A stretch of DNA of 64,000 nt. Source: Lunularia cruciata. Its lineage: Eukaryota > Streptophyta > Marchantiopsida > Lunulariales > Lunulariaceae. The stretch lies in NCBI GenBank assembly GCA_948567375.1, contig OX419756.1, positions 45,150,333-45,214,332 on the forward strand. The letters run 5' to 3'. Each line of letters starts with the position of its first letter. The stretch's first letter is position 1. The notes under the pieces are model-generated. The model had not been told where the DNA came from and searched no databases. It was given only the letters and a program-made list of their open reading frames with translations. The translations under genes and the position numbers were made by a program. Shown one piece after another: positions 5,506 through 48,047 of this stretch.

Positions 5506-8142
5506 ATGAATGTGTCAGATAGCTGCAGCGTTGCGGTTACTATGAAGAATGAAGAACTGGATTCGTTGCTTACCAGAGATGGTACCCTGGATTACAAGGG
5601 CCAGCCAGCAGAAAAGTCAAAGACTGGGACGATGAGTGTGTCGCCATACATTTTTGGTAAATGACAATGACTGAATCACTGTCACAGTAGTAGCCGCTGA
5701 TACATTAAAGTCTTTAATTCTTTGATGAACTGCCCACGGAAGAACGCAGTTTTACCTAGTGGAGTGCACAAATGACGAAAATATGTGGATACCCTCCATT
5801 GATCAATATTTAGATGGATCTGTGCAGTGGCGGAGTTTGCTGAGAGAACAGCGGGCTTTGGAGTGGCAATAAACATCATTACTTATTTAGTTAAACAGAA
5901 GCATTTCCATCTAGCAGATGCCGCCAACATGACGACCAACTTCATTGGCACAAGTTTTCTGCTCACCCTCTTGGGAGGATTTCTGGCAGACACGTATTTG
6001 GGCCGCTTCTGGACTATCTTGGTCTTTCAATTCGTCCAACTGATGGTAATGATAGAAGATTAATCCATCAGGCATTTCACCTTTCATTTCTTTTCCTTAC
6101 GGTTCATCAACTTGGTCTCTGAAAACAAATCTTCTGAATTGTTCCATACCTACCAAATAATAGAAAATAAGGTTTCTAGGTGACGATCAAGTTCGGATCG
6201 GGTCTAGGACAGCACATCCCGTAAAGCTGAAGGATCTTATTCTAACTAACTACGATCAGTGGTATTCATTGTGCAGGGTCTGTTTGTTATGATCATCAAC
6301 TCTTCCTTGAACCAGTTCAAATGCTTCGATACTCTGCAGGCCAAGTGCAAGCCAGCACACGGAGCGGATGTCACCCTCATATACCTCGGCCTTTACCTCG
6401 TGGCATTAGGAACTGGTGGAATCAAATCAAGTGTATCATCATTTGGTGCAGACCAGTTTGAGAAAGAGGACCCCAAAGAAGCCCGGCAGATGCCCCATTA
6501 CTTTAACTACTTCTATTTGTCGGTGATGCTGGGGGCTCTGTTAGCAGGATCTTTTATTGTCTATATTCAGGACCGAAGCTGGTCTTGGGGTTTCGGCGCA
6601 CTTGCGATTATTATGTGTGTGTCGATAGTAACATTCTGCATCGCCAGGCGAAGCTATAGATACAAAATTCCGCAAGGTAGTCCACTCACTGCATTGAGCA
6701 AGGTGTTTGTGGCGGCAGTGAGGAACCGTAATCTGCCACGACCAATAGACATCCGTGGCTTTTGCAACGAGGAGAGAAAGGGTGCCTTGCTCAAAGTTGC
6801 CCAGACCAAAAACATGAGGTATGTGGCATGATCAATTGCAATTGATTCCAACGTTAAGATCTAGATATATGGATAATAAATGGAAAAGCCATACCAAAAG
6901 CAAACGATTCAAAGATACTAGTACTCGGGGAGATCACAAAGTTAGGTTGCAGCATGAGCAGGACTAGGAAATACCTGCCTCGAGCTATTCCTCCAGCGCT
7001 GTTAGTTTTCATGTAGTAGATATCGGTCAGATCCTTCTCCAAAATACTGCAGAAACCAGTGCAATTAAATCTCGATACGCAGCATTGCTTATATGTGCAC
7101 GTATGTTCCGTCTTAACTTCCCGTACTAGTTGAGACAGAAGAAAAGCCGAAAGTCACTCATACTTTTGGCTCCTGAATACGAGTAAATTACAGATGGGTG
7201 GACAAAGCTGCAATCATGACTGATAAAACGAGCTCGACCATCGACAGAACGCGTAGGATCGCCACAATTACTGAAGTAGAAGACTTCAAAATGGTGATGC
7301 GTCTGCTACCTATCCTGGCAACCACATGGTTTTTCTGGACTGTTCAGGCGCAATTCCACACATTTACCATCACGCAGGCTTCAACAATGAACAGGTCACT
7401 GGGGCCAAATTTCACAGTTCCTCCGGCGTCTGTGGGCGTGCTCCAAACTGTCACTATTCTCCTCGGGATAGCAGTTTACGATCGAGTATTCTTACCGATC
7501 GCTAGGCGCTTCACTGGAAATCCGAGAGGTATCACCACTCTACAGCGAATTGGACTGGCACTCGTTACGCCCATCTTTACAATGACATGTGCTGCCTTGG
7601 TCGAACGGAGAAGACTTCAAGAGGTCCATCACTTGAACTGGGAGCTGAGGGCTCTTGAACCAATGAAAAGTTTCTCAATGTTCTGGATAGCCCCACAGTT
7701 TTTGATTATGGGGATTGGAGAGGCTTTTATGTTACCCGGTCAACTGGATTTTTTCTACAGTGAATCACCTGAAAACATGCAGTCCATGGGCTCATCACTG
7801 TATTTGTGTACTATAGCCATAGGTAATTTTGCTAGCAGTGCAATGGTATCAGCTGTGAACTCCGTCTCTTCTTCTTCTGCTCAGGGACCCTGGATTCCGG
7901 ACAATGTGAATGTTGCTCGTTTAGACAGCTACTACTGGCTGTTGGCAGTAATTAGTGCAATTAATCTAATTCTCTTCCTCATAGTTTCAAAATTCCACAT
8001 CTATAAAACAACTTATATCTATTCCTCCCCCACCATAGGTGCACTAGACGAAGGACAGGATATCGATCAGCCGTCAAAGGTTTACACCTCAACTTCTCGT
8101 AGAGAAGATCGTGTTTCCTCTTCGGGAACAGGAGATGCCTGA
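5506..8142 (+). CDS. NPF (NRT1/PTR family) proton-coupled transporter, 4 coding exons, 619 aa
   Basis: Seen: exons 5506-5656, 5828-6045, 6277-6818 and 7194-8142 have GT..AG introns with phases 1, 0 and 2, and join to 620 codons including the stop. The spliced protein has the ExxER proton-coupling motif (E53, E56, R57), a GTGGIK segment with K173, the LGRFWT segment with T113, a second-half WTVQAQ segment and GIGE (E480) before GQLDFF. These match the two six-helix halves of plasma-membrane or vacuolar NPF carriers, and the length is normal for the family. Known: members move nitrate, peptides, hormones or specialised metabolites with protons. The residue matching the nitrate-binding His356 of Arabidopsis NRT1.1 is Q355, so nitrate need not be the substrate. 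Subfamily is uncertain; NPF4/NPF6-like wording occurs in the first half. The start ATG at 5506 directly follows CCTACAG, so it is probably the first base of an exon. There are no internal stops; the gene looks intact. Confidence 0.93.
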
Positions 8143-28220: not shown

Positions 28221-28940
28221 GGAAAAATTATGCATAAAAAATTACACAATTTTCTTGTGCTTTGGCCAATGTTTGCCTATGTCCACAACTACACAAGATT
28301 TTCTTTATTCAAGAGCTATCAAGATCACAATTTACCACCAACACTACCAAAATATATATACAATTGCACTTGGTCTTACTAGTTCTTGAATGTTTTCTAC
28401 CAATTGATCCACTATCTAACCATAGATATTTTGGTATTAATTGATACATGTCACCTCACAAAGTTCCACAAGTGAGATCCATTCCCATAGCTACCCATAG
28501 GGTACATTCCCACAATCCTACAGTCTTGGAGCCTTTGCCACAAGAACCATTCTTGTAGTCCCATAGTCTTTCATGTAAGAGCCATTCTCATAAGCCTTGT
28601 AGCTAGTTCCGCAACCTTCTCACAAGTCTTGTAGGTCCATAAGACACATTTGACTTGAAATTTAGGTGGACATAACTTCTTTCTTAGATCTTTATTTACC
28701 ATGATCTTGGTGTTTCTTAAGCCTTTGAGAAAATGCTTCCAATGAGATAAGACACACTTCATTTGTATGTGTATTCACAAAAAAATCAGTCTTGTCATGA
28801 ACTACCTTTCTATGCACTTCTATGCCATCTACTCCAAGTATATGGTATACCCTATGGGGTCCAAAAGATCAAGAGGCCGGATGCTATTGAGCCCCATTGT
28901 GAGTTGCTTGTTTGCAATCTATACCATATAAAGGATGAAC
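28220..28940. other. No recognised gene; 3' side of the Ty3 element
   Basis: Between the gag fragment and the minus-strand PHD-like finger. Loosely repeated CCxCAAxxCTTGTAG phrases occur at 28470-28640. This should contain the end and 3' LTR of the minus-strand Ty3 element, but I could not identify its terminus. Confidence 0.3.
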
Positions 28941-29458
28941 TAGGTATATGTCAAGTACATCTAGGACATAACCACTATCCTTGAACAACCATCGTGAGGG
29001 GAGGAGTCATACATACCATATGCCATCCTCTCAAACCATCCTTCCAAACAACACCATCACGTCCTTCCAACATAAGGACTCTAGATGGCAAAACCTTGTG
29101 CACTCTGAAGATAGTATGGTCCATAGAAACATCAAGTATCATCGGTGTGGTTTGTTGTAGATATACATAGTCACTTGGATGAAATCGATAGATCAAGGAT
29201 CTGTAACCTCCTCCTCAAAATGGTAGGTAAGGTGTCTTTATGCTGAGCAATCACAAAGTTCCCAAAGGCCATCTACATCACTCTTCAAAAGATTTCTGCC
29301 CATTTAGAATATGCGCTCATCCATCCATCTAGATCACCTAAGTCCAAAACTATAGTAGCATCTTGACAAATGGTTGCAGGTAAATTTGGATCTTGTCCAT
29401 AGAGTAGAAAATAAGGAGAGAAGGATGTTAACTTGACTCTTTATTGAACCGCAACTAG
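28940..29458 (-). pseudogene. Ty3 integrase C-terminal part with PHD-like zinc finger
   Basis: On the minus strand: LTSFSPYFLLYGQDPNLPAT (about 29430-29370), GDLDGWMSAYSKWAE, then FHPSDYVYLQQTTPMILDV and VLPSRVLMLEGRDGVVWKDG. It ends RGWHMVCMTPPLTMVVQG, a stop, and WLCPRC (about 28960). SPY..LLYG is the classic Ty3 integrase C-terminal motif. The GWHMxCxxPPL...WxCPxC ending is the second half of a PHD finger; the first Cys pairs appear to have been lost between VVWKDG and RGWHM. This half is separated from the catalytic core by the insertion at 29459-31474. Stops and shifts make it inactive. Confidence 0.78.
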
Positions 29459-31474
29459 TGAAGGTTTAAGAAGCATCTATGTAAGTATAGGAATTTTCTT
29501 TAAGTGACCAGATTAACAATGTAGGGAAGTGCTAATCAAATAGCCTCAGCTATTTTTTTCTCATGGGCTGGACACGAGGACAAGAAGATAGGAGAGGAAA
29601 TGATCAAAGGAAGGGGTTTTGACAGATGGAGACTTCTTGAGAGTAGAGGGGTTTTGGAGAGAGGGCTTTGAAAAAGGAGGAAATTATCAAAGAAGAGAGG
29701 GTTTGGCTGAGGCAAAAAGAATTCTCAAAAATATGTAGGGCAGAGAGGTCCATGAGAGTATGGCAGGAGAGTGTTTAGTCAAAGGAGAGGTTTTTGAGAG
29801 TGGCAAGACATGAAGAAGGTCAAAGAAGAAGAATTGAGCTTGGACAAGAAGAAACCTTGAGATAAAGTTGGGAATGGACAGAGAAGAGTTTTGAAGAAGG
29901 TTTTGGGGATTGAACAAGAAGAGAAATCTGGAAGGAGAGTTGGGGCTGGACGGAGAGGGAAGAAAGGAAATTCTCAAAGATAGGGTTGGCTTGAAGAGAA
30001 ACAAAAAGGAGTATATTGAAGGAAGAGAGGGCTCATCACAACTGGAGAGGACATTTGAAGGGGAAGAAGGTTTGTGGGTTTTGTGACAGGAAGGAAAGGG
30101 CATCTAGAGAAGGGCAATGGGACAAGAGAGAGGAAATTCTCAAAGAGAAAGGCTTGGCTAGAGAAGTGAGGAGAGAAATCTCAAAGGTAGAGGAGGTTTT
30201 GTGTAGGAGGTGATAGGCAAGAGAAGAGAGACCTCAAAGGGAAGTCTGGGCAAGAGAACTCTCGAAGGGAAGGTCTGAAAAGACAAGAAGGTCTGTAGGG
30301 AGAGGACTAGAAGAAAGATTACTTCTGAATAAGAGAATTTTTTTCTCAAAGGGTTTTGGGATTTTGGACCAAGAAAAGAGAATTACCAAGGGAAGAGATT
30401 TTAGTGCGTTTAGTGACAAGAAAGGGAAAGGAGAACTCTCCAATGTGGCAGGACTGAAGTCTGGGCAGGAGAAATTTTGAAGGGAAGGTCTGGATAGAAG
30501 GAACTTTTGAGAATGAAGGGTTGGCCAAGACTGAAGGCTGGACAAAGAAATCTTGAGAATGAAGGTTTGGCCATGATTGCAGCAAGAATAGAGTATCGAG
30601 GGGGAGGTAAGGTCTGAACAGGAATGAAAACTTGGAGAGCTTTGACAGGATAGGAAAAGGTTTCAAAGGGCTGCAAGACAAGGAAGTCTTGTAGCTTTGC
30701 AAGAGTAAACTATTGAAGAAGCATTAAGAAAGAGCCTTGATAAGAAAGAGAGAGAGGACATGGAGAACGTGAAGGGAATTTGCAGGCAAGAAGAACTCTC
30801 AAAGGGATTGTAGGGCAGATTAGTGACAGAAGGAAGGTCAAAGAGAAGCTTTGGCAAAACATGGAGATAAAATGTTGTGAGAAATAGAATTAGAACTTGG
30901 TGGTGATCAATTATTTCCTTTTCCTACTTGAGCAGTTGCATAAACTTAGGAGAGGTCATTGTTATGGTCTGGAGCTCTTTGGCTTCCCCAAGAGGATATA
31001 TAAATTGTGAGGCGTGATATTGTGGTGAATGTTATAAGGTTCTTCATGAGTGAATGTGTTTATTTTATTTTTTGAAGAGTGTCAGGGGAAAAGAAGCTCG
31101 GTGCCTTCAGTCCAATTTATGCAGACAAATCATGTCACTGATCTAGTTGGTCGTATAGCTTGTGACCTACTAGATAAACCCCACCAAACCCAGAAAATAC
31201 AAACCCAACATTAATAGAACTTGAACAAGAGCTAGTGATACATGAAGATCAACATTATTCCAAGAAAACTCAACATGAAGAACCATTAAGAAGAGCCTAC
31301 AATTAGGTGCAATTGCAAACAAGTTGCTCCAACAAAAGTCACTTACCATCAAGACAAAGAGCAGAGACCGTATTAGAATGCGGGTAAGCTTTTGAGTCAC
31401 TAACAAATAGAGCAGTCTAAGTGTAGGAAGCCAGGTGCACGGCGCATTCACAAGACTATATAATCCCCAAGACA
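29459..31474 (-). mobile_element. Long solo LTR (left copy), inserted in integrase
   Basis: In minus orientation it starts TGTCTTGGGGATTATATAG and ends AAACCTTCA. Integrase coding runs up to it on one side (LPWLARGYWFS) and resumes on the other (SFSPYFLLYG), so it is an insertion of about 2.0 kb. The flanks carry CTAG and CTGG, a likely 4-bp target duplication with one change. The first 300 bp match the right copy at 36229; positions 29570-30880 are strongly purine-rich on the plus strand. A TATATAAATTG motif also occurs on the plus strand at about 31000. No internal coding domains were seen. Confidence 0.65.
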
Positions 31475-32330
31475 CTGGCTGAACCAATAGCCCCTGGCCA
31501 ACCAAGGTAATTGGAGATCACAATCTCCCAAGTGGCCTCTCTGCAAACTATACTTTTGCAATCCTCTCTTCACTATCTAAACCACCCTCTCTACTAAGCC
31601 ATATGCCTTAGGGTGATCTCAGAGGTAGCATGATGATCAATCAAAGCCTTCTTACACAAGACACAAGAACTTGTCACACAAGCTTTGTCACACTCTATAC
31701 CCTGATCAGTCAAAACCTCAACTGGTGCACCAAAAAGACTAAGAACCCGATCCAAGAACAAGTAAGCCATCCTTTACTAGACTTGGTAGCAAGTGCCTCC
31801 AACTCAATCCACTTGGAGAAGCACTCCACCATCACCAAAACGTATTGATGATGTCTCATAGTCAATGTTAAGGGTCCAGCAAAGTCTAAACTCCAACGGT
31901 AACCCAACCCCATGATAGGTAATGGGTGTAATTGTGGCATAAGCGCATTGAATGATGCTCTAACTTGGTCACAAACCACACATCTAACAACAAACTATTG
32001 TACATTGGTGTGCATACTGTGCAACCAATAATGACTCTAGAGTAAGCTATATGTATGCTTTACTCCAAAATGTCATAGCTCCTTAGAGCATGATGGACCA
32101 ATTATGATCGCTAAGATGGAAATGGTACTACTTGCTCTCTACTATCCTTCCATACGCAAAGAAGGTGTCTGCCCTCCAATCTGAACCATATGGCTTGTTG
32201 AAGAACACAATCTTTCTCCTTGGCCCCAACTATGCCATCCACAACACCAATGTGAAGATAGTTCATCACTAAGACATCATCATGAATATCTTGTTGAATT
32301 ATACCACTATCTCCACTCTTTGGATTTGTG
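31475..32330 (-). pseudogene. Ty3 integrase catalytic core (degenerate)
   Basis: The minus strand carries the CVVCDQV half of the zinc-binding region, then GYRWSLDFAGPL (first Asp), HHQYVLVMVECFSKWIELEA, FGAPVEVLTDQG (second Asp), and GLVERVV (candidate Glu). It continues to LPWLARGYWFS at 31480, where the solo LTR starts. Integrase joins the element's cDNA to host DNA. It follows RNase H in the order gag-PR-MTase-RT-RH-IN. Stops occur (for example after LEALATKSSKG region shifts), so it is not functional. Confidence 0.85.
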
Positions 32331-32479: not shown

Positions 32480-32860
32480 ACATGGGTTTCTACTCAACCC
32501 ATCTACATCACGATTCAACACTTGAGATTTATGAATAATCATGAAATCATACTCCTATAAAATCGAAGCCCATCATGCAAGCTTCCTTGAAAGCTTATCG
32601 AACTCCATCAACCACTTTAGTGGCTGATGATCAATGATGAGAGTAAAGAAGTTACCAAATAGGCTACATAAAAAATGTGCTACTACCCTTACTACTGCCA
32701 AACACTCTCCCTCATATGAACTATACTTCATCTCCATTGAATTGTTGGAGTGACTAGCATAGACCACCACAAACTCCTTCTCCTCATCATCATGATGGAT
32801 GAGCATTGCTCCAAGTCCCAACATACTCCAATCAATGTGAATCTAAAATGGTCATCCTCT
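32480..32860 (-). pseudogene. Ty3 RNase H (degenerate)
   Basis: Positions 32824-32573 read MLGLGAMLIHHDDEEKEFVV, YASHSNNSMEMKYSSYEGEC and DHQPLKWLMEFDKLSRKLA. The same frame continues in 32542-32111 with DVDGLSRNPCP. ASxSxxxxExxYSxxExEcLA and DHQPLKWL are standard Ty3 RNase H signatures, and the DxDGLSRxP phrase marks its end. The frame from 32824 to 32111 is continuous apart from stops, making this the best-preserved pol section. Confidence 0.93.
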
Positions 32861-33760
32861 GATTGGTCTCCTCAAAATAGGAGTAGCTGTCAACCTCTCC
32901 TTGAGCTCTACAAAAGCTCTCTCTTGCTCATCTCCCCAACACCACTCTTGGGTAAGCTTGGTCAGCTTTGTCAAATCCTTGGCAATGCTACTGAATCCTC
33001 TAACATATCAGCGATTGAAGTTTTCCAACCCAAGGAATGCTCACAATCTCCTCACATCCATAGGCCAAGGAATACATGCAATAGCCTCCACCTTGGTTTG
33101 CTGAACACCAAGTCCTCAAGGGTAGATAGTGTGACCCAAATACTCAACCTATTTGTGGAAGAACCTACACTTCCCAGGATGTAATTTGAGTCCATGAGAT
33201 CTCAACCTCTCAAACACCTCCAACAACTATCTCTCATGCTCCTCCACAATAGTGCTATAGACCAACATGTCATCAATATAGCAATGAGCAAAATCCATCC
33301 ACCTAGGATCCTATCCATGACCCTTTAGAACTCAGCAAGAGCGTTCTTTAACCCAAATGGTAAGAACTTCCATTGATATAACACATCCTTACCATGAGGA
33401 TCAATAGCCAAAAATATTTTCTTGGACTTATAACCTCCCTAATTAGCAATTGATGATATCTTGCTCAAAGATCCAAATTATTGAAGCCCTTTGCATACCC
33501 AATCAATCAAACATCTCCTTTGATATAGGCATGGCATACCAATCATCCTAGTCTATTGGTTGATAGGATGGTAATCTCCACACATCTGACTATTTGTGTA
33601 GGTGCTATGCATATCCTTCTTGGCTAGCATCACTATAGCTGATGCATACTCTCCATGTGAAATCTCCACCAAACCAATCTCAAAAAGGTCTCTACTCCGT
33701 CTCTGAAACAATACTCTCTCCATGTCACTATATCAATAAGGACATCAAAAAATTGGTGTA
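32861..33760 (-). pseudogene. Ty3 reverse transcriptase (degenerate)
   Basis: Minus-strand pieces in shifting frames: SHGEYASAIVMLAKKDMHST (about 33665), MCGDYHPINQ, then DFAHCYIDDMLVYSTIVEEH with the catalytic YIDD at 33280-33269, and GLKLHPG / FLGLxN-type remnants nearby. These are the fingers, palm and thumb landmarks of Ty3 RT in order. At least three frameshifts and several stops are present. The enzyme copies element RNA to cDNA; this copy cannot. Confidence 0.88.
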
Positions 33761-34199
33761 TTGCTAGTCAACTCAATGCAAATGCCAAGTCTTTTAGAGC
33801 ATCCAAATCCTTCATAATGAAAGCAAAAAAACTTGTTTAGCTCTTCAAGAACCTCCAAACCTTCCGTCTTTCCTCTCCTATAAGTTTGGGTCCAAGATCT
33901 GGCTCTCAAGTATCCTTTGTAACTATTGTAGGAGTGGAAGACTTATTGACTAGATGCTACACCAGGTCCTTGCAAGCAATAGTGTTATGCTCCCAACCAT
34001 TAGAGATCCTAACCTCAATGTGAAAAACTCCCTCCACTCTGGCTGCAAGCTCCATACATCCTCTCGTTGCATCCCAAGTAGACCAAGGGTGTAATCCAAG
34101 TAGACCATGCTCACCTAGATGGACTCCAAGTAGACCAGTCTCCCTAGAAGCTATTGGTTGTGTCCCAAGAATTCCTTGTCCACTTGGTCCATCACCTCT

Positions 34200-35290
34200 G
34201 GCATATGCTTGAATTGTCTCAATAGGCCCAAAGCTCACAAGTGTTTGAGTGGTGATGCCTATCAAGCGCATCCTATGCTGCTCTGCCAAGCCAAGGCTCA
34301 CAATCTAGGTCAAACAATTTAAGTCCATAGCCTGACCTAACATATGACCCCTGGATGCCTTTGACACTGTTGGAACAATGGTAATACCAATGCAAAAACC
34401 CATCATCTACTCTCTCTCATTGACGTTGGACTCCACCAACTATTGTAATTGTGAGTCCCAAACCAATCCAAGACTTCTCTCTTGAAAAGCATGGGAGCTT
34501 GCAAAACTCATGTGGGAAAAGTAGCTTTGGGCTATCCAACTAGGTTCACCATTGCCATAGGTGACCTATCAGCCACTGCCACTGTTTGAGACTAACATCC
34601 AACATCCAAGATATATCAACAATGATGTGGTCTAGTCATTAAATCTTGTCATAAGTGTGCTATAGAACCTCTCTAGGTAAGAGGTTTGTCCACCAAAGAC
34701 AAAGACAATGAGCCCATGATCCCACTTTGGCTGCATCTAATAACACAGCATGTCCCATCCAAGAGTGCACCTAATGCATACTTGGCCACCACCTGAGTGC
34801 AAGAATCACCCATCAAATGGACATTCTCCAAAATGTAAGCTAGAGAAATGGATTGATGAACTTGGAGATGTCATAATATACATAATATCTCCCAAAACAT
34901 ACCAAAATGGGGATCTTGAAGACCCAAACCTTGGCCAATGCATGTATGTCCTTGACATGACCATCCAAAATCACCAAATAAATGGGACCATGTCTCTCCA
35001 AATCCTACGCCCCCAACAAGGAAATGTATGTTGGTAAGGTCTTTTGGTAACCCTTTACTTTTGACATCGGTAATAACTCAAGATACCGATAGACTAAGTG
35101 TGTCACATGATGTAGAGAGACTCATCTAGTAATGTCATCTCTCTCCACATACAAGTACCATTGTACTCATATACCTGCCTATAATACCACAGCTAGTCTA
35201 GTGCTAATCCCACCAAACAACTCCAATAGAATTATTCTATCTACTAGATATTGCCAAGCAATGATTGTGGTATCTTAAGGTGTCAAGTTA
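34200..35290 (-). pseudogene. C5 cytosine DNA methyltransferase domain inside the Ty3 element (degenerate)
   Basis: Seen on the minus strand: motif I LLELFGGISTRLAVVL (35232-35185) followed by YLYVERDD; a DLERHGPIYLVI segment; motif IV GWSCQGHT (34966-34943, Pro of the usual PCQ changed to Ser); GQGLGLQDPHFGMFWEIL; motif VI AYILENVHLMGDS (ENV at 34828-34820); motif VIII region LDAAKVGSWAHCLCLWWTNL (34740-34681); and motif X-like LGQAMDLNCLT (about 34340-34308) after MMGFCIGITIVP. The order and spacing are those of C5 methyltransferases, which flip out and methylate cytosine using AdoMet, with the motif IV Cys as nucleophile. It lies between protease and RT of the same element and on the same strand. 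One frameshift just before motif IV and about ten stops show it is dead. Confidence 0.9.
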
Positions 35291-35579
35291 ATTGAATTTA
35301 AAGCCTCATCCTTGCATCGTTCTCCTGGTGGTACAAAGGATCCACTCCAAGCTTGTTGCACCAACTGATCCGCATGTTGCTACAATGCTTCCTCTAAACT
35401 CCACAATGGAACATCAAGGTGGATGGAACAATCCCACCCATGCTCCAAATCCAAGTGATCTCCTCTGGTATTGGAGTATATTCTACATGGGCATTTCCTT
35501 ACAATAAATCATCAAGCCAAGTAACAAAACCACTAAAAGTTGAAAATGATGTTGCCATGGTCCTTGATTGTAGTGGGCC

Positions 35580-36228
35580 AAGATTGCTACTACTAAAGCA
35601 TACTAGTAGGCAACATACCCATCATTCACCTGACTGCCAACCTGGTCTATAGGAGGCTATCTCCTTCCAATAGTCAATATTAAAACCCATGGAGTATAAC
35701 ATCGCTCCCCCAACTAACACATCATACGACTCAACTACAATTGCAATGGCCTGAGCTCTCACCATAGAGTTATCAGTCGGATGACCGGGCTGAATTTGAA
35801 CAACAAGCTCTCCACATGTGATGTACTATGTAGAACCACCACCTAGAGATGTATGGATCTGAAATGGACACTTCTCCACATTGGTCTTCCATAACTCTAG
35901 ATCAACAACTGTAGCCTTTCCCAATATAAGGGGTTGTGCACTAGAGTCTAATAAGACCCTCTATGGTGTATAGACCTTCCTGAAAAGTTCTACCAAACAA
36001 ATAATCCCCCTCTAGTTATCCAATAAAAACTCTAGGTGTAAACTACGCTTGCTCAAAGGCTAGTCTAATTAGTAACTCCTCCAATCTAGCTGATGGTGAT
36101 TGCCATAAACCACTAGTCATTGAGCGGATCCCATGCTCCTCAACCAAGTCAGCTCCATTATCAACCCCCTCTGCTCTAGTAGTAGAGACCACATTATCCC
36201 TACTCTCACAAATTGTGGTAGCCAACTG
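35580..36228 (-). pseudogene. Ty3 aspartic protease and gag-protease linker (degenerate)
   Basis: After the linker frame 36225-36043 (ends LEELLIRLAFEQA), the minus strand gives RVLLDSSAQPLILGKATVVD at about 35962-35903, with DSSA as the active-site triad, then FQIHTSLGGGST, an ILVGG-type VLVGGAMLYSMGFNIDYW segment and YRPGWQSG. The VDxxxSL...DVLVGxxxL layout is a retroviral-type aspartic protease, which cuts the polyprotein. It directly precedes the methyltransferase domain. Confidence 0.75.
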
Positions 36229-38648
36229 GTGTCATGGGGATTGGTTTGTCTCAAGAGTGCACCGGGCACTTGGCTGCTTGCACATAGACTGCTCGACTTG
36301 TCAACGGTTCAAAGCCTTTTGTGATCAGACCTTGTCTCTACTTTTGCCCAAATGGCAGTCCTTCTTGCTGGAGCAGCTTGCTATCAATGCTTCTAAACAT
36401 AAGCTCATCTTTAATGGCTTCTTGGGTTGGGCTCTGTTGAGGCAATCTTAATCTTTAAGCTTCATTGCTAATGTTAAAGTTTTGTTCATATTAAATTTGT
36501 GTTCAGCGGGCGGTGTTGTATTTCCTCTAAAGAATCACAGTCAATTCTTAGACCTCTGTTTTGTTGTGACTCCTCCTGAGATCTTCTCCAGGTCTTTTCT
36601 CTGATTGATAGGTTCTCATTCATGACTTCTTCCTTTTGTCCAAACTCAAAACTCCTGCACAGCCAGAATTCTCTTCCAAAAGTTTCCCTTACCTTTCTTC
36701 AGCACTTCTTACTCATTCCTGAATTCTCTCCTAAACCCTTCATATTCTCTCCTGAAAAGCACCATATTCTCTCGAAAGGCATAACAGGTCTTCCATTCTC
36801 TCCCAAAAGCTTCTCACATTCACATTATCTCTAAATACAGCTTCACATTCTCCCTAAAAAGAAAGCACCACATTCTCTCAAAAGGCATAACAGGCCTCCA
36901 CATTCTCTCCCAAAGTTTATCACATTCTCTCAAAAAGTATAACAGGTCTTCACATTCTCTCCCAAAATTTTATCACATCCTCTTAAAAAAAACATAACAG
37001 GTCTTCACATTCTTTCCTTTGAACGATGTCACAATCTCCCGAAAGCATACCTCCTTTGTCATTCTCCCAAAACATCTCTCATGTCCTTAACCAAAAAGAA
37101 ATCACTTCTTGTCCTTCTCAAAATTTCTCACATTCTTGTCCCAAAAACTTCACATGGAAAATTCTTTGTTCCTTCAACTCCTGCTCTCCAACTCTGCTCT
37201 TTTCCCAAAATCTTGGCAATCCCTAAATCTCCTACTAAATCTCCTACTCGTTCTTCACAACCTTCAGATCTCTAGAAAAGCATAACTTCTCTCAAGATTC
37301 TTTTCTGAAGCACACACTCTGCAGTCCTCACTTTCAGTTTCCTTCCCTTCTGTCCAAGCAGGCCTCTTCTCCTTTGGGAAAATCTCCCTTATCTTCCTTT
37401 TTCTGTCCAAACCCCTCTTCAGGCTAGACACTGTCCTTTGATGTTTCTCCTATCACCTCACTCTATCTTACTCTTGTTCAGGCCAGACCTCTCAACCCTT
37501 TTCTTCAAAGCCACATCCTCCTCCCCTAAATGTACTATCTCTTTCAGGCCAAAGCCATTCTTGACGCCCTATATACTGCTCTGATCTGCCAAATCCCTTC
37601 AAAGAATTCCCTGCAGACCCTTTGATAATTCTCTCTCTATCCATCAAAACCTTCTTCTTCAAATCATCCCTGTCTTGTCACCAAAATCCCTTTCTTGAAG
37701 CACCTCTATCCCTTTCCTTATTTGCTGTCATGGCCAGCCTTCACCATTCAAGAGTTTCTTTCCAGCCCTTCCCCACCTTTGATCTTGTTTTCCTTCAGCT
37801 CCTTGTTCTGACATAGTTCAAAGGCTCTCTCGATGATTTTTCCTAGTCCCTCTCTGGCCCTATCACTATTCAAGCTCTCTCAATGATTTTCCCTTCCTTG
37901 TCTCTTCACTTCACTCCAAAGACCCTTCCTGGCTACCCCTTCACAGTCACTCCAATTCCCTTTGATACATCTCTCTCACTCCTAAAAACCTTCTCCCTAT
38001 TCTTCTCTATCATTCAAAAGAACCCCTCTCGATACTTCTTTGTCACTCATTCTTGTCCGATTCCCCAATCCCCTGTCCATTTCTTTAAAAAAACATGTTC
38101 AGCCTCTCTCTCCAGATGATTCTTCTCTTCAATCCTTCTCTTGTTTTCTAGTTTTCACTCCTTTGTTTCCTGTCCTCTATTCTCTCCTGATTTCCTCCTT
38201 TTGATGCTTCTCTCTCGTGCACTCTCTCGATTCCTCAAAACTCCTACTTTTGTTCCAGTCGATTCCTTTCTCCTTCTTTCCCTTGTTGCTGCTAAACTCT
38301 CTTTCAATTCTTTCTCCTGTCTCTTTCTTTCTTCAACCCTTCGATTCCTATCTCTCTCTATTGCACCTTCCTATTTCTCCGTCTCTGCTTTCCTTCCAAT
38401 TCCTCTCCAATTTCCTCTTGTTTTCTGTCCTTTCCTCCTTTGATTACTTTTCAACCTCTTCTTGTTTTCTGTTAATTCCTCCCTGGCACTCTTCTTCCCT
38501 TTGATGGTTGTCTTTTCTTAAAAAAATAAAAACCTTTTTATATATTTCTTGTCCTTTCTTCTTTGTTGATTTTCAAAACCCTCTCACGTTTCCTGTCCTA
38601 TCTCTGAAGCTCTGTTCTTTGATACCTCTCTATCAAAACCTTCTTTGC

Positions 38649-38774
38649 CACTTCCCAAAGAATACTCCTACCTATCAATTCCATCTCTGCCACTTCCCAA
38701 AGAGTATTCCTGCTTGTCAATTCCATCTCTGCCACTTCTCGAAGAGTACTCCTGCCTAAGTCTCCATTGCTCCT
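38649..38774 (+). repeat. 42-bp tandem repeat, 3 units
   Basis: CACTTCCCAAAGA-type starts at 38649, 38691 and 38733 give an exact 42-bp period. Because 42 is a multiple of three, the region has an artefactual open frame with a 14-residue repeat. Confidence 0.9.
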
Positions 38775-39650
38775 TCTTTTTCCCTTCACTCTCCTTCCTT
38801 TTGATCCTTCAATTTTTGATTACCTCCCCTCAACTCTCACTCCTCCTTCCTCATCTCTCTTCCTTGACTCTTCTCCCCTGTCCCTCTTGAAGTGCAACTC
38901 CTTCAAGAAAGTTCCTTGTTAGCTCCTTCACACGCCCCTTCCTTCGGAAAAAATTTCCTTTGTTTCTCTTCACAAGATCTCCCTTTATTTTATTTTATTT
39001 TTCTCTACCTTGTTTTTCTCTTCCCAAAAAGTATTCCTGCATGTCAATTCCATCTCTGCTACTTCCCAAAGAGTATTCCTGCCTAACTCTCCATTGTCCT
39101 CCTCTTTTTCACTTCACTCTCCTTCCTTTTGATCCTTCAATTTTTGGTTACCTCCCCCCAGCTCTCACTCCTCCTTCCTCATCTCTCTTCCTCAACTCTT
39201 CTCCCTTGTCCCTCTTGAAGTGCAACTCCTTTGGGAAAGTTCCCTGTTAGCTCCTTCACACGCCCCTTCCTTTGGAAAAAAATTCCTTTGTTTCTCTTCA
39301 TAAGATCTCCCAAAATTTAATTTAATTTAATTTTTCTCTATCTCGTTTTTCTCTTCCTAAAGAGTATTCCTCCCAAACTCTCTATTGTCTCCCTCTTTTT
39401 CCCTTCACTCTCCTTCCTTTTGATCCTTCAATTTTTGGTTACCTCCCCCCCCCAGCTCTCACTCCTCCTTCCTCATCTCTCTTCCTCTACTCTTCTTTCC
39501 TGTCCCTCTTGAAGTGCAACTCCTTTGGGAAAGTTCCCTGTCAGCTCCTTCACACGCCCCTTCCTATGGAAAAAATTCCTTTGTTTCTCTTCACAAGATC
39601 TCCCAAAATTTAATTAAATTTTATTTTTCTTTACCTTGTTGACTCCCTTG
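38740..39650 (+). repeat. ~300-bp tandem repeat, 3 units within the CT-rich LTR
   Basis: Three consecutive copies (about 38740-39065, 39066-39358, 39359-39650) share AGAGTAxTCCT, CTTCACTCTCCTTCCTTTTG, CAATTTTTGxTTACCTCCCC, CACACGCCCCTTCC and AAGATCTCCC. They differ in a short AT tract (TTTATTTTATTT against AATTTAATTTAATTT) and a poly-C run at about 39444. Confidence 0.88.
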
Positions 39651-40245
39651 TCATCAGCCATCTTTTAAAGGTTCTCCCTACATTGTTAACTCCATTGCCA
39701 TCAGCCATAAGTATTCCCTCAAACCCTTCTCCTTAAACCCTTCCTTCTTTGTCACTTCTTCCACAAGCACTGTTTTCCCGCAAGATCTCTCGAAGCATTC
39801 CCTAAAAATGAAAAAAATCCTTCTAAGACCCCAATAACCTAGAAAAGCATAGTCTTGAGCCCGTGCAGCATAAATCTATTCCCTCTGAATGTGTAACTCC
39901 AAAAGAACTCCCATTTTCATGCAAACTAATAAATACTTCTGAGTTTATGCCTAATTTTTGAGCTTTCAAGCTCACGAGAAATTAACAAAACTTTTGACCT
40001 CACGACGGCATGAAGAATATTCACGAGACACAATAACTAAAAGAAAACCCAAAGTCATTGCTACCCAGGAAAACAAAACCTTCACACCAAATGGCATCCA
40101 TAGTACGCATGGGCTACTTTCCCAATGACACCGAAACACTAGGGCTAGGTCAACTCCAAAGGTAAACATATCACTAACTGAGAACAAAGGATAGTGCAGA
40201 ATCAACATCAAGCTTGACTTAGTTTGTGTAGTAGTCGGTAGTTGA

Positions 40246-42822
40246 CTAGTAGGTAGTTCCTCATGTATCCCATCACCACCTACCACACCTACACTAGGAC
40301 ATCTAGGAGCCATGGATGTTTTGTAGAGTGCCTCAAAGAATGTAAAAGACAAGGGAAGTCTTACATGTCTACCAACCTCTCCTCTCTGTGGATCCAACTC
40401 CATTGATGCTTCTCTATGCTCTAAAGCATGTATTGCACTCCTAGTCACTAAAATAGATGCATCCACCTATGCTACTCTGCACATGAAGTCTAAGATGTCT
40501 CTTTCACCCATATATGAGGTGGAAGCCTTAGCACCCAAATCTGATCTCCTTTGAGTTATGGCCATGCTAGCCAATCTTTGCTCCAACTACTCAACGCAAG
40601 TAGCCATGGTTGTATCAAAAGTAAGGGCATGTATTGCACCCCTACTAGGTGAAGATCCTCTGCCACTACCTCTACCACCTTGTCCTCCATGACTTGGAGC
40701 TCCTCTACCACCTGCCATGATAGCTCTACCACTCCGTAACTCCAAGTGTAGGTCAAAGCACTGGTCATTAGTGTGACCAAATCTATGGCAATGCTCACAT
40801 TATCTCTTTGGTGGCTATGATGCACCAAAGGTATCAGGTCCATTGCCCTGAGTGCACTCTCTCTTGTGGTGAGGTCCATCACAAGTCCAACAAGCAACAC
40901 CACCACTCACTGGCTGTTGCTAAGTCAAAAATGAAGGTAATGGTCTAGCTACACTAAATCCTCCACTTGCTCCATAAGATCTGGGCCCACCTTGTCCTTG
41001 GAAACCAACATGGCATGGTGCACTCTAGAAGAACTAATGGTTGTGAATGAGGTCTCCCTACCAAATCAACATATTGCCACTTTCTCCTCCACCACGTTGA
41101 GCTCAATATGCTCAGCCAAACCAAAGACCATCACCAAAGTAGGTGAAGTAGCTTATAACAATGTAGCATCATGTACTCTATGTCACAATTCCCTATCTAA
41201 TATCCCATAAAAAATTTGGATTGCTTGGGCCTCAATAACTCCATGAGTAAAACTGATCAACCATATCATGCAAGTGTCTGCCTTGCAAAGGCTCTCTCTA
41301 GCCTTTTGTTGGAACTTCCACAAGCTCCTTAGCTTATCAGTTCGCACTCCTTTGTAGTTCTGCCTCAAACACTAGAAGAACTCCACCATGTGGCTATACC
41401 CCAATACTAAACCACCTCATATAATAGTACCTCCACTGTAATACTCTGAGGACAAGAGAAGAGAAAAAACACAGATTGCACACTCAAATATTCGATGCCC
41501 CAAGGGAGCACCTTCTCTTTATTATATAGACAAAGAGGATCTCCTCCAAGGAAGCTCCACCCTAGGATTAGGGACACAGATAGGTGACATGTCGGCAAGC
41601 TCCACCCTTGGATTACTTACTTGGATGGGTGACCTGTCTGGTCTAGGTCCTATCTGGTTGGTCAAACAAGCTTTGACCAGAGGGAATCTTTTAGGGAATC
41701 TTCCTATAGGAATCTCAGAATCACATAAGGTACCGTTGGAAAGCTCTCGACGAGACAAAGCAGGGGGAGGGAAGGCCAACCTTCCCTCTGTTGGGGGGGA
41801 AATCTGCACATTTTTGAGGCCTAATTCATCCGTTTAGGCCTCCAAAATTGCCTTCAAAGATTTCAGGCATATTTCGGTTCCTACTCTATTAGTAGAAGTC
41901 CTCTTTTGGTGATACCTCTTTCTGATCTGTTTAGTCCATCATGTGTAACATCTTTCCAGATGTTACCAAACCAATTCTCACCTTTAAATCATATGTCTAG
42001 CTATTGGTTCTGAGGTTCTCAAGTCTATTTCGGTTTCTGCCCTATTAGTAGAAGTACTCTTTTGGTGATACTTCTATCTGATCTATTTTGACCATCATGT
42101 ATAACATCATTCTAGATGTTACCAAACCAAATTTCACATCTAGATCATATGGCTAATCCTTGGTATTACATCCACTTATAGTAGCACTATCTCCAAGAGA
42201 TCCACCAATACTACTAGAGCTAGAACTTGTGGGTATAGCCAATCTTCCCCTAGAAATTGAGCCCGAAGTGATGAAGACATAGTTTGGAGACCGATATTGT
42301 CTTCATAGCTCAATCTCCTCCAAATGAGCTCTTCTCCAAATAAACTCATGGTAGTCATCCATTGATGGACCCTCCAAGTGCTGAAATAACCCCTTCCATA
42401 CCATGAAGGGTGTGAACAAAGTCAAGTTCCACATCTGATGCAGATCACACCAACTAGTAAACTCCTGAATGAAGTCATCCAACTCAATGGTCTCCATTGT
42501 ACCAGAGTAACACTTGGGGCTTTTGGAGGCCCCATAAATCTTGTCCATGTCCCACAACAACGGCATAGACACACCAAGTGCACTCTCAATTGAATCAACT
42601 CATGTGTTACACTCCAAATTAGAGTCAATCTCCTCTCTCATTGGGACATAAGATATAGGCTGATATCAAGCACCACTTCAAGTAAATCCACTACATCTTG
42701 CAGTGCTACCTCCTTTGGAATCCTCAAAGAACTCCATTGTGACAAAGTAGCCAAAAACTGCAACTTGCAACCGTAACCACCGCAAGTACCACACCAAGTG
42801 CCAACATCACCAAGTATCAACG
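40246..42822 (-). pseudogene. Ty3 gag with two zinc knuckles, split by a solo LTR
   Basis: Minus-strand frames: about 42720-42300 (ALQDVVDLLEVV, ESALGVSMPLLWDMDKIYGA, TIELDDFIQEFTSWCDLHQM, MVWKGLFQHLEG), then after the LTR at 41437-42170, HMVEFF / LRQNYKGVRTDKLRSLWKFQ and ESLCKADTCMIWLISFTHGV. Zinc knuckles follow at about 40890-40760: CWTCDGPHHKREC and CEHCHRFGHTNDQC (the second is a textbook CX2CX4HX4C). A Gly/Arg/Ser-rich tail follows. Gag packages element RNA. The 5' edge is cut by the LTR-like end at 42823. Confidence 0.85.
41437..42170 (-). mobile_element. 734-bp solo LTR with perfect 5-bp target duplication
   Basis: The element is bounded by TGTAATAC and GTATTACA and flanked on both sides by TCCAC (41432-41436 and 42171-42175). 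On the minus strand CTATATAATAAAGAG is a good promoter about 90 bp before the end, so the LTR points left. It interrupts the Ty3 gag between the S/G-rich segment and HMVEFF, and removing it restores gag order. No internal coding sequence. Internal short direct repeats (TTTTGGTGATACxTCTxTCTGATCT) are present near 41900 and 42075. Confidence 0.92.
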
Positions 42823-46229: not shown

Positions 46230-48047
46230 TTTAGTCAATTTCAAAATTGATCTCCCTTCTTCTGCATGTCAATGTCTAGTCACTATCAAGACATGCTTCT
46301 TTGGCCTCCGCTGTTTCTTGAAGTGTACTTTCGTGCCACATAGAGCAATTGTTAGACTATCTTTGTATTGGCCTTTGCTGCCCAATCCAAAGATGATCGT
46401 CTTTGGACTTGTGTCTTCCTACTCCCTTCTGAATACTTCCATTTTCCGACCCAAAGTCGACTTCTTTGGGTTTACTCCAAAGACACTCCCATCCATTCTT
46501 TTCTTTGTAATTCGGCTTTCTTACTCACTTCTTCCTCAAAACACTACAAAACAAAAAATGTGTGCACCACACAACATACTAACCAAATGTCACCCACTAA
46601 TGTAGCTCTAACTACAACAACTACACTAGGAGAAAAGGCAACCTATAACCTACCATCACAACATGCACTCTCAAGGTCTACAGGTCATCACTTCTTGCCT
46701 CACCATAGAGAAACATAGGTAGTTTGACCGATAAACCCTATTGCTCACAATCTAGTAGGGTGCGGAAATTTTGCCAAACAATGACCAAAATCTACTCTAA
46801 ACTAGCTAGCCTCACACCAACAAGCTGGCTTGCTGGCCCTTCTGGGCCTTTGTAGCCTCTCATAGCCCATAGCCTATGCCTCAAAGCCTCTAAATACCAA
46901 AATTCAGCCAAATGAGGACTTTCCTCTTGCCACTTTGAACCCTCTCCAAATTTGGCAAAACTCCTCCAAATCAAGCCAAGCTCCTCCAACTAAAGTTGGT
47001 TGATTGCCAAATCCTTTGCTAAATCCTTATTCAAGCCAAATTGGATGGACTAGATTCTCCAAATTTGTAATTCATCAAGATGGGTTCCCAATGCCACCTT
47101 CAATTTCACTTTTTGAGCTCAACTCACACCAAATTGGTCTTGCTTTCCGTCTTGAGCTCAAAATCACCACTACCACTTGAAATTGCTTTCTTTGCTCAAA
47201 ATTTGGCCAACTCTCCACATACCCTCTGCCTCCACCCTCTGCCTCACTACCAAATTTACATCAATTCAAAGACTTTCTTTACATGATCACTCTCAAGGAA
47301 ACTTTGGGTCATGATCAAGCTACCAACAATCATCAAGGCTTGGAAATACCACCAACACCTTCAGTCCTTGCACTTGATTTCCCCTTGACCTCATTTCTTT
47401 GATGTAATTACTTTGTTTACACAATTTGAATCACACTCAATCAGATCAGTACTTGATTTGTCACTCCATAATCTGCCAACAACCAAGCACTGATTACAGT
47501 CAAGCCACACCCACTTTAGCTAAAAGAATCCAAGTGACGCTATACGCTTGTCAGCCTCTATCTACCATAGCTAGGAACTCAAAAGCTCAACATCAGAGAA
47601 GTAAGCTCTTTGGCATTGCATTTCAAAAGTATATCTCTTGGTCTCCAACCCTAATGGTCCTACTGATGGCACATCCGATGGTATGAATGGTGCTAAGTGA
47701 TGGTGGGCCCACCATGTAGTTAGTACCCCAAACACACAATCTGATTGTCAACAAGTAGTCTATGAGTAACTACCAAAATATTGACTACCAACACTACTAC
47801 TCCAGAGTATAAGCAATCTAGGTGCAATGCTACAAATTGCATGACATCCTCTATAGTATTAGTCATACCAACCTCAACTACCATAGTCACATGTACTACC
47901 ATTTGAATTGCAATTTCAACATTATCATTATATACTTACTTTATCTTTTAATATGTAATCCTAGATAACATAAAATAGTCAATACTCATTCTAATACTTG
48001 TACTTGTGGTCTATTTTCTTGATATTTTAATGCAAGACCTATTTTAC
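46230..48047. other. Intergenic or repeat-derived, nothing recognised
   Basis: No frame resembles a known protein on either strand. It probably includes the 5' LTR or leader of the minus-strand gag-like element, but no LTR landmarks could be matched with confidence. Confidence 0.3.

What the first reader, a model, noticed from the sequence alone, without database searches (positions are those of the whole stretch)
34200..35290. A C5 cytosine DNA methyltransferase domain carried inside a plant Ty3/gypsy retrotransposon
Between the aspartic protease and the reverse transcriptase, on the same strand, lies an array of C5-methyltransferase motifs in the right order: motif I (LELFGGIS), a D..DL segment, motif IV (GWSCQGH), the GLGLQDPHFGMFWE segment, motif VI (ENV), the motif VIII region (GSWAHCLCLWWTNL) and motif X (LGQAMDLNCLT). 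Ordinary Ty3 elements have no such domain. C5 methyltransferases captured by retrotransposons have, as I recall, been reported from dinoflagellates and a charophyte alga, so a land-plant element with the domain between PR and RT would be of real interest. A self-methylating element could mark its own copies and so change how the host silences it.
Basis: partly seen in the sequence, partly recalled or inferred. Interest (0 to 1): 0.93.

Follow-up and report, generated by a model that had tools for sequence, protein, structure and literature searches.

The report
Retrotransposon carrying a DNA methyltransferase
A jumping gene in a plant genome, with relatives in liverworts and peat moss, carries its own DNA-marking enzyme; a 2019 paper stated that land plants have no such elements, and what the enzyme does for the element is still untested.

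Summary
At 35,235-34,284 (minus strand), between Ty3 protease and reverse transcriptase, lies a decayed DNMT3-like C5-cytosine methyltransferase (MTase) domain (E 2.5e-72 against a sister copy). This copy is dead: 14 in-frame stops and four indels in the domain. The 129 best-scoring domains in the genome are full-length, 77 without a stop. The family reads Gag-protease-MTase, one UAG, then RT-RNaseH-integrase-PHD in the same frame. The UAG is kept in 28 of 28 copies, with a type I readthrough context in 26, so MTase would be made at Gag, not Pol, levels. Repeats are A-coding-B-A-B with 4-bp target duplications in 14 of 16, like the alga Klebsormidium's Gypsy-Dnmt3. Relatives sit in Marchantia, Calypogeia, Sphagnum and a green alga, with differing domain orders; their MTases form one clade apart from host DNMT3. 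A 2019 paper states that land plants lack transposon-encoded methylases; my searches listed no report of this group. Likeliest role: methylating the element's new DNA; activity and benefit are untested. New variant of a known kind.

The parts
46990..47851 (-). 5' end of the old element copy: repeat A1 (about 450 bp) plus 5' leader
   Evidence: blastn to L014, 72.3% identity
40695..42776 (-). Gag remains with an insert at about 41,437-42,167
   Evidence: tblastn of L010 Gag, 65-78%; blastn segments
35481..36017 (-). retropepsin-like protease region
   Evidence: tblastn of L010 PR, 72.6%, E 3.7e-80
34284..35235 (-). DNMT3-like C5-cytosine methyltransferase domain, decayed (14 in-frame stops, 4 indels)
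   Evidence: tblastn of L010 MT, E 2.5e-72; Marchantia MT 3.1e-45
33957..33959 (-). UAG between the Gag-PR-MTase frame and the RT frame; same stop as in the 27 sister loci compared
32528..33786 (-). reverse transcriptase and RNase H remains
   Evidence: tblastn of L014 RT-RH, E 5.5e-169; PF17917 1.4e-20 for 32573-32842
31475..32084 (-). integrase core remains
   Evidence: tblastn of L014 IN, E 1.8e-72; rve 0.0019 for 31710-31994, below its curated cut-off
28954..29440 (-). integrase C-terminal piece (29,440-29,339) and PHD finger remains (29,133-28,954)
   Evidence: tblastn, E 5.0e-11 and 7.7e-12
28824..29036 (-). most 3' matched part of the element; no match to the 3' B-A-B repeats was found next to it
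   Evidence: blastn to L014, 87.5%

Best explanation
This is an old, dead copy of a multicopy Ty3/Gypsy retrotransposon family whose Gag-protease reading frame ends in a DNMT3-like cytosine methyltransferase. Shown: young copies encode Gag-PR-MTase, a conserved in-frame UAG with a type I readthrough context, then RT-RNaseH-integrase-PHD; they have A-coding-B-A-B repeats and 4-bp target duplications, as expected of a DDE integrase; the MTase fold and catalytic residues are kept across deep lineages. Inferred: ordinary termination gives abundant Gag-PR-MTase and occasional readthrough gives the Pol proteins, so the methyltransferase is packed into the particle at near-Gag amounts and methylates the element's own DNA during or after reverse transcription, before the integrase (guided by the PHD finger) inserts it.
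Against: No activity, expression or particle data. None of the 20 ten-kb copies had both frames at full length. The Klebsormidium Gypsy DNMT gave no methylation in yeast, which the authors call inconclusive (PMC5890265). Mutation footprints in copies are CG plus CHG, as host MET1 and CMT would give, so they are no sign of self-methylation. No stable RNA structure follows the UAG (z +1.1). Some relatives have no stop between MTase and RT in the protein listed: P0123 is one 2352-aa frame, and Marchantia or Sphagnum gene models P0022, P0079, P0081, P0083 and P0092 run on into RT (splicing in the models was not checked). In other lineages the MTase sits between RNase H and integrase, so Gag-level dosage is not needed everywhere. 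Selection ratios are without a significance test and above the Ka/Ks < 0.2 reported for K. nitens.
Confidence: 0.55

Rival explanations
1. The methyltransferase acts after integration, on the host side: it silences or marks new copies (or other elements) so that insertions are tolerated, or it keeps the host methylation machinery busy.
For: The MTase is encoded with Gag-PR and could act apart from RT. The window copy has lost C in CG (45%) and CHG (36%) contexts far more than in CHH (9%), so such copies are methylated in the long run.
Against: CHG loss points to a host CMT, which the genome seems to have (L003, by motif); nothing ties the marks to the element's enzyme. No nuclear targeting was tested.
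Confidence: 0.2
2. The domain methylates RNA, for instance the element's genomic RNA or a tRNA primer, as DNMT2 does.
For: It is in the Gag-PR protein with two CCHC knuckles that would bind RNA (sequence of L010 ORF1). De Mendoza et al. raise RNA methylation for LINE DNMTs.
Against: The sequence profile is closest to DNMT3, not DNMT2 (1.7e-21 against 4.8e-4), and so is the fold.
Confidence: 0.08
3. The MTase is inert cargo that hitch-hikes in a successful element.
For: Only 10 of 20 copies read through the whole MTase without a stop; 52 of the 129 best-scoring copies have a stop (hand count).
Against: Catalytic residues are kept at 31-75% overall identity across liverwort, moss and metagenomic relatives, and MTase is more alike than Gag in 15 of 16; shared variants are biased to silent changes.
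Confidence: 0.1
4. A host DNMT gene fragment fell into a single Ty3 copy by chance.
For: The host has DNMT3 and, by motif, DRM, CMT and MET1 genes.
Against: At least 77 copies have the domain uninterrupted; element MTases form one clade (99/97) and a join of this type with host DNMT3 is rejected (p 0.0004).
Confidence: 0.01

Closest known systems
KnitGypsy-Dnmt3 of Klebsormidium nitens (de Mendoza et al. 2018, PMC5890265; passages seen)
   Same: Gypsy domain content; DNMT3-related domain in the Pol polyprotein; repeats arranged as in DIRS (A-coding-B-A-B); key residues kept
   Different: Host is an alga; its MTase position and any PHD finger or leaky stop would be in a figure I could not see. 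No K. nitens name came up in three protein searches, so common descent was not tested
SymbioDIRS-Dnmt3 of dinoflagellates (same paper)
   Same: DNMT3-like domain, A-coding-B-A-B repeats; those DNMTs methylate CG in yeast
   Different: Tyrosine recombinase instead of DDE integrase; a distantly related retrotransposon class according to the paper
DNMT3A/3B catalytic domain
   Different: 18-26% identity in the structural alignments; separate clade; ORF1 of L010 shows no other Pfam domain beside it
Chromoviruses (Ty3 with an integrase chromodomain; from general knowledge)
   Same: Chromatin-reader module at the integrase C-terminus
   Different: PHD finger (PF00628, 2.2e-10) instead of a chromodomain
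Tobamovirus type I readthrough (UAG CARYYA; PMC5382211, passages)
   Same: UAG CAGCCA between the abundant protein and the polymerase
   Different: Found here at a retrotransposon Gag-Pol junction; readthrough not measured

Membership tests
Ty3/Gypsy (Metaviridae-type) retrotransposon | pol order RT-RNaseH-DDE integrase | tested here: met
   PF00078, PF17917, PF17921, PF00665 in that order in L014 ORF2
Ty3/Gypsy (Metaviridae-type) retrotransposon | short target-site duplication, TG...CA ends | tested here: met
   4-bp TSD in 14 of 16 copies
Ty3/Gypsy (Metaviridae-type) retrotransposon | identical long terminal repeats at both ends | tested here: not met
   5' end has A only, 3' end has B-A-B
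DNMT-encoding Gypsy (KnitGypsy-Dnmt3 type) | DNMT3-related domain inside a Gypsy polyprotein | tested here: met
   here in the Gag-PR frame, ahead of the UAG
DNMT-encoding Gypsy (KnitGypsy-Dnmt3 type) | A-coding-B-A-B repeats | tested here: met
   arrangement as worded in PMC5890265
DNMT-encoding Gypsy (KnitGypsy-Dnmt3 type) | common descent with the K. nitens element | not testable with these tools
DNMT-encoding Gypsy (KnitGypsy-Dnmt3 type) | strong purifying selection on the DNMT (Ka/Ks < 0.2 in the paper) | tested here: inconclusive
   0.34 for shared, 0.60 for singleton variants among 20 young copies
DNMT3 | catalytic motifs and DNMT3 fold, unrearranged motif order | tested here: met
DNMT3 | falls inside the eukaryotic DNMT3 clade | tested here: inconclusive
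   own clade (99/97) with a long stem and a distant root; the deep part of the tree is doubtful, as human DNMT3A joins host DRM there
DIRS | tyrosine recombinase, no target duplication | tested here: not met
   DDE integrase and 4-bp TSD
Chromovirus | integrase chromodomain | tested here: not met
   no PF00385 at E <= 0.1 in L014 ORF2; PHD finger there
Type I leaky stop | UAG followed by CARYYA | tested here: met
   UAG 28 of 28, CARYYA 26 of 28
Type I leaky stop | measured readthrough | not testable with these tools
   needs a reporter or ribosome profiling

The most novel reading that the evidence does not exclude
A single ancient capture of a DNMT3-like enzyme founded a clade of PHD-bearing Ty3 elements in green plants. 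The enzyme later moved within the polyprotein (before RT, or between RNase H and integrase). In bryophytes it was placed ahead of a leaky stop, making it a particle component at Gag dose, so that these elements enter the host genome already methylated. In the genome studied here they are numerous enough to add to the host methylome.
Probability: 0.3. Interest if true: 0.88.

Novelty: new variant of a known kind. Interest (0 to 1): 0.74.

Why it matters
A 2019 opinion paper says transposon-encoded methylases are absent from land plants and builds an argument about DNA viruses on it (PMC6338049, passages). This family, in Marchantia (a standard laboratory plant), another liverwort and Sphagnum, contradicts that and makes the open question of what a retrotransposon gains from a cytosine methyltransferase testable in a plant with good genetics. 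The enzyme's position before a leaky stop gives a specific prediction about dose and place of action. Studies that count DNMT3-like genes in bryophytes may also be counting transposon copies.

Tried and rejected
Two window frame pieces alone gave no DNA_methylase hit. I looked for direct repeats of 100 nt or more in L010 and found none; the A-coding-B-A-B arrangement explains this. RNA structure after the UAG: none beyond chance. The hypothesis that the MTase came from the host's own DNMT3 was rejected (the group was defined by domain order, but after an earlier tree had been seen). The host CMT fragment was dropped from the second tree because its very long branch fell among elements. L004, the second DRM (L048) and 14 of 42 element rows were left out too, among them the long-branched P0117 and P0118. 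The set with MTase ahead of RT came out as one clade (85/93) but not as a supported one. K. nitens sequences were sought in three protein searches without success. Host name: not settled. Window tRNA and promoter scans gave nothing useful. VIA-align lists bacterial CpG and GCGC methyltransferases below DNMT3.

The wanted test of whether close RT relatives without MTase exist was requested; none was answered (not completed).

Full report
What was checked. The finding claims a C5-cytosine methyltransferase (MTase) between protease and reverse transcriptase of a plant Ty3 element at 34.2-35.3 kb, minus strand. Sister proteins match exactly there: L010 MTase at 35,235-34,284 (E 2.5e-72), Marchantia P0077 (3.1e-45) and Calypogeia P0001 (1.1e-57), while on the reversed window the best of eight queries reached only E 0.099. 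Protease lies just upstream and RT-RNaseH just downstream on the same strand. The copy is old: 84.8% identical to L014 over 4.77 kb, with 14 in-frame stops and four indels in the MTase and decayed motifs IV and VIII. It runs from about 47,851 to 28,824 with four inserts, and no 3' repeats were matched.

The family. The window lies in a 566 Mb genome (G000). A PF00145 search scored 123 of 2,161 candidates. I examined 33 of these. Six are host genes: L001 and L004 DNMT3, L002 and L048 DRM, L003 CMT, L049 MET1; these names rest on motifs and motif order as I know them, and only L001 was also tested (human DNMT3A, 2e-14). Twenty-seven are element copies (L005-L028, L050-L052). The other 90 were not looked at one by one. 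A search with the L010 MTase scored the best 129 of 12,864 candidates. All 129 cover at least 305 of 306 residues at 95-100% identity, and 77 have no stop inside (52 do; hand count). The total is a lower bound, and the intact share is that of the best-scoring copies, not of the family.

Coding plan. Twenty ten-kb copies were chosen partly for long frames. The longest ORF1 is 1,428 aa (L009, L010) and the longest ORF2 1,037 aa (L013, L014); none of the 20 has both at full length. ORF1 has Gag with two CCHC knuckles, an LLDSGAQ protease and the MTase; Pfam names only the MTase in L010, but relatives P0017, P0090 and P0091 carry a retropepsin family (PF13650) and match our PR piece (for the last two). 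ORF2 has RT, RNase H, H2C2, integrase core and a C-terminal PHD finger (PF00628, 2.2e-10), nearest in the PDB to CHD4 and KMT2-type PHD fingers. The two frames are in phase and parted by one UAG. It is UAG in 28 of 28 copies including the old window copy. The next six bases fit CARYYA in 26 of 28 (CAGCCA 22, CAGCTA 2, CAGTCA 2; exceptions CAGCTT in L025 and CATCTA in the window). UAG-CARYYA is the type I readthrough signal of tobamoviruses (PMC5382211, passages). No RNA structure stands out after it. If it works as in those viruses, the MTase is made with every Gag and RT-IN only on readthrough. Marchantia P0077 and P0078 and metagenomic P0086-P0091 also end 79-129 residues after the MTase; the DNA of those was not seen. 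Against a universal stop, P0123 is a single frame of 2,352 aa through MTase and RT, and gene models P0022, P0079, P0081, P0083 and P0092 run on into RT, whether by splicing in the model was not checked.

Ends. The element starts with repeat A (about 450 bp, TGTCACGCC...) and ends with B1-A2-B2 (B about 108 bp), i.e. A-coding-B-A-B. It inserts with TG...CA ends and a 4-bp target duplication in 14 of 16 copies; L021 and L026 lack one. The internal B1|A2 junction reads GACA-GC-TGTC in 11 of 16, with one base changed in three and not found by my pattern in two: the two element ends joined tail to head with two bases between. A1 and A2 differ by K2P 0 to 0.068 in 16 copies, over 210-452 bases, so many insertions are young; I give no years because I have no rate for this host.

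Selection. Over up to 20 copies, the amino-acid-changing to silent ratio per site is 0.34 for variants shared by two or more copies and 0.60 for singletons in the MTase; 0.23 and 0.41 in RT; 0.21 and 0.55 in Gag; 0.42 and 0.69 in PR; 0.32 and 0.37 in RNase H; 0.54 and 0.85 in integrase. That fits purifying selection in the active lineage followed by neutral decay, with no significance test done.

Relatives. Three protein searches returned 76, 48 and 14 hits, with overlaps, from capped candidate lists. Named sources are Marchantia polymorpha, Calypogeia fissa, Sphagnum (three species) and the green alga Monoraphidium neglectum; one hit is filed under a bacterial bin. Most others are metagenomic. 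Domain order differs: Gag-PR-MTase ahead of RT in bryophytes and some metagenomic lineages, RT-RNaseH-MTase-IN-PHD in others (RT-RNaseH-MTase also in the Monoraphidium protein), and MTase-RT-RNaseH-IN in a third set. In a tree of 32 RTs the 19 RT-RH-MTase rows form one clade (99/93), six rows of the third set another (100/100), and two Marchantia rows plus our own another (100/100), with P0123 apart; the MTase carriers together are only weakly grouped against three without (88/46). In a tree of 32 MTases the 28 element rows form one clade (99/97), and forcing the MTase-ahead-of-RT rows to join host DNMT3 is rejected (p 0.0004). The deep part of that tree is doubtful (human DNMT3A joins host DRM). 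A single old capture with later moves inside the polyprotein is the simplest reading; repeated capture from one unseen source is not excluded.

Methylation footprints. Against L014, the window copy has lost 45% of CG, 36% of CHG and 9% of CHH cytosines to T (120/268, 184/512, 148/1623; both strands). This is what host MET1 and CMT methylation would leave and does not reveal the element's own enzyme. No other element family was measured for comparison.

Host. The name is hidden. Seven of the eight main contigs named in the searches are 60.2-84.9 Mb long and C11 has a match out to 60.2 Mb, so eight contigs hold nearly all of the genome; it has DNMT3 and, by motif, DRM. This fits a liverwort, perhaps Lunularia (580 Mb, Gypsy bursts; PMC9985172, passages), but that is inference. 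The land-plant claim rests on the named Marchantia, Calypogeia and Sphagnum proteins.

Literature. De Mendoza et al. 2018 (PMC5890265, passages) report Dnmt3 in a Klebsormidium Gypsy element with DIRS-like repeats; its yeast activity was inconclusive. Morozov et al. [quoted passage not shown] In a 2025 DNMT survey (PMC12344493, passages) the passage on retrotransposon DNMT3 speaks of streptophytes and dinoflagellates. A 2019 paper on plant DNMT3 (PMC6453930, passages) showed nothing on this. Searches on Marchantia/retrotransposon/DNMT3/Gypsy (both of 2 listed), DNMT/Marchantia polymorpha/Sphagnum/LTR (10 of 26), PHD finger/Gypsy (both of 2) and the 2018 title with liverwort (15 of 343) listed no report of this family; the library holds open-licence papers only.

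Verdict. It is a new variant of a known kind. New here, as far as my searches show: the bryophyte distribution, the placement before a conserved type I stop, the PHD integrase, and the domain-order shifts. What the enzyme does is inferred, not shown.

Noticed in passing
window 6250-6828 and 7177-8139, + strand: Exons of a POT/NPF (PTR2) transporter gene, probably a host gene (PF00854, 1.8e-39 and 8.8e-46).
   Followed up: partly
window 36229-40130, repeats at 38775-39622: A pyrimidine-rich insert in the old element copy holds three degenerate tandem copies of a 226-bp unit. Its edge and that of the insert at 29431-31477 share 90 nt at 72% in opposite orientation, but blastn found no longer match between the two inserts.
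   Followed up: partly
L019 and L025, flanks: Two young copies seem to sit inside other copies of the same family (3' untranslated part; 5' leader), so the family inserts into itself.
   Followed up: no
L021, end of repeat A2: A2 carries a few more bases than in other copies before B2 starts, and this copy has no matching target duplication although A1 and A2 are identical over 303 bp; it may show how the repeats form.
   Followed up: no
P0031: A protein filed as Candidatus Obscuribacterales DNA cytosine methyltransferase falls in this retrotransposon MTase clade, probably a eukaryotic contig in a bacterial bin.
   Followed up: partly
P0093-P0118: Metagenomic polyproteins with MTase between RNase H and integrase, and a branch with ECQ in place of PCQ in motif IV (22 of 79 domains).
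   Followed up: partly
L017, reverse strand, first 2.3 kb: A different Ty3 element fragment next door (32-41% identity in IN and RT) has no MTase between RT and integrase; the part ahead of its RT is not held.
   Followed up: no
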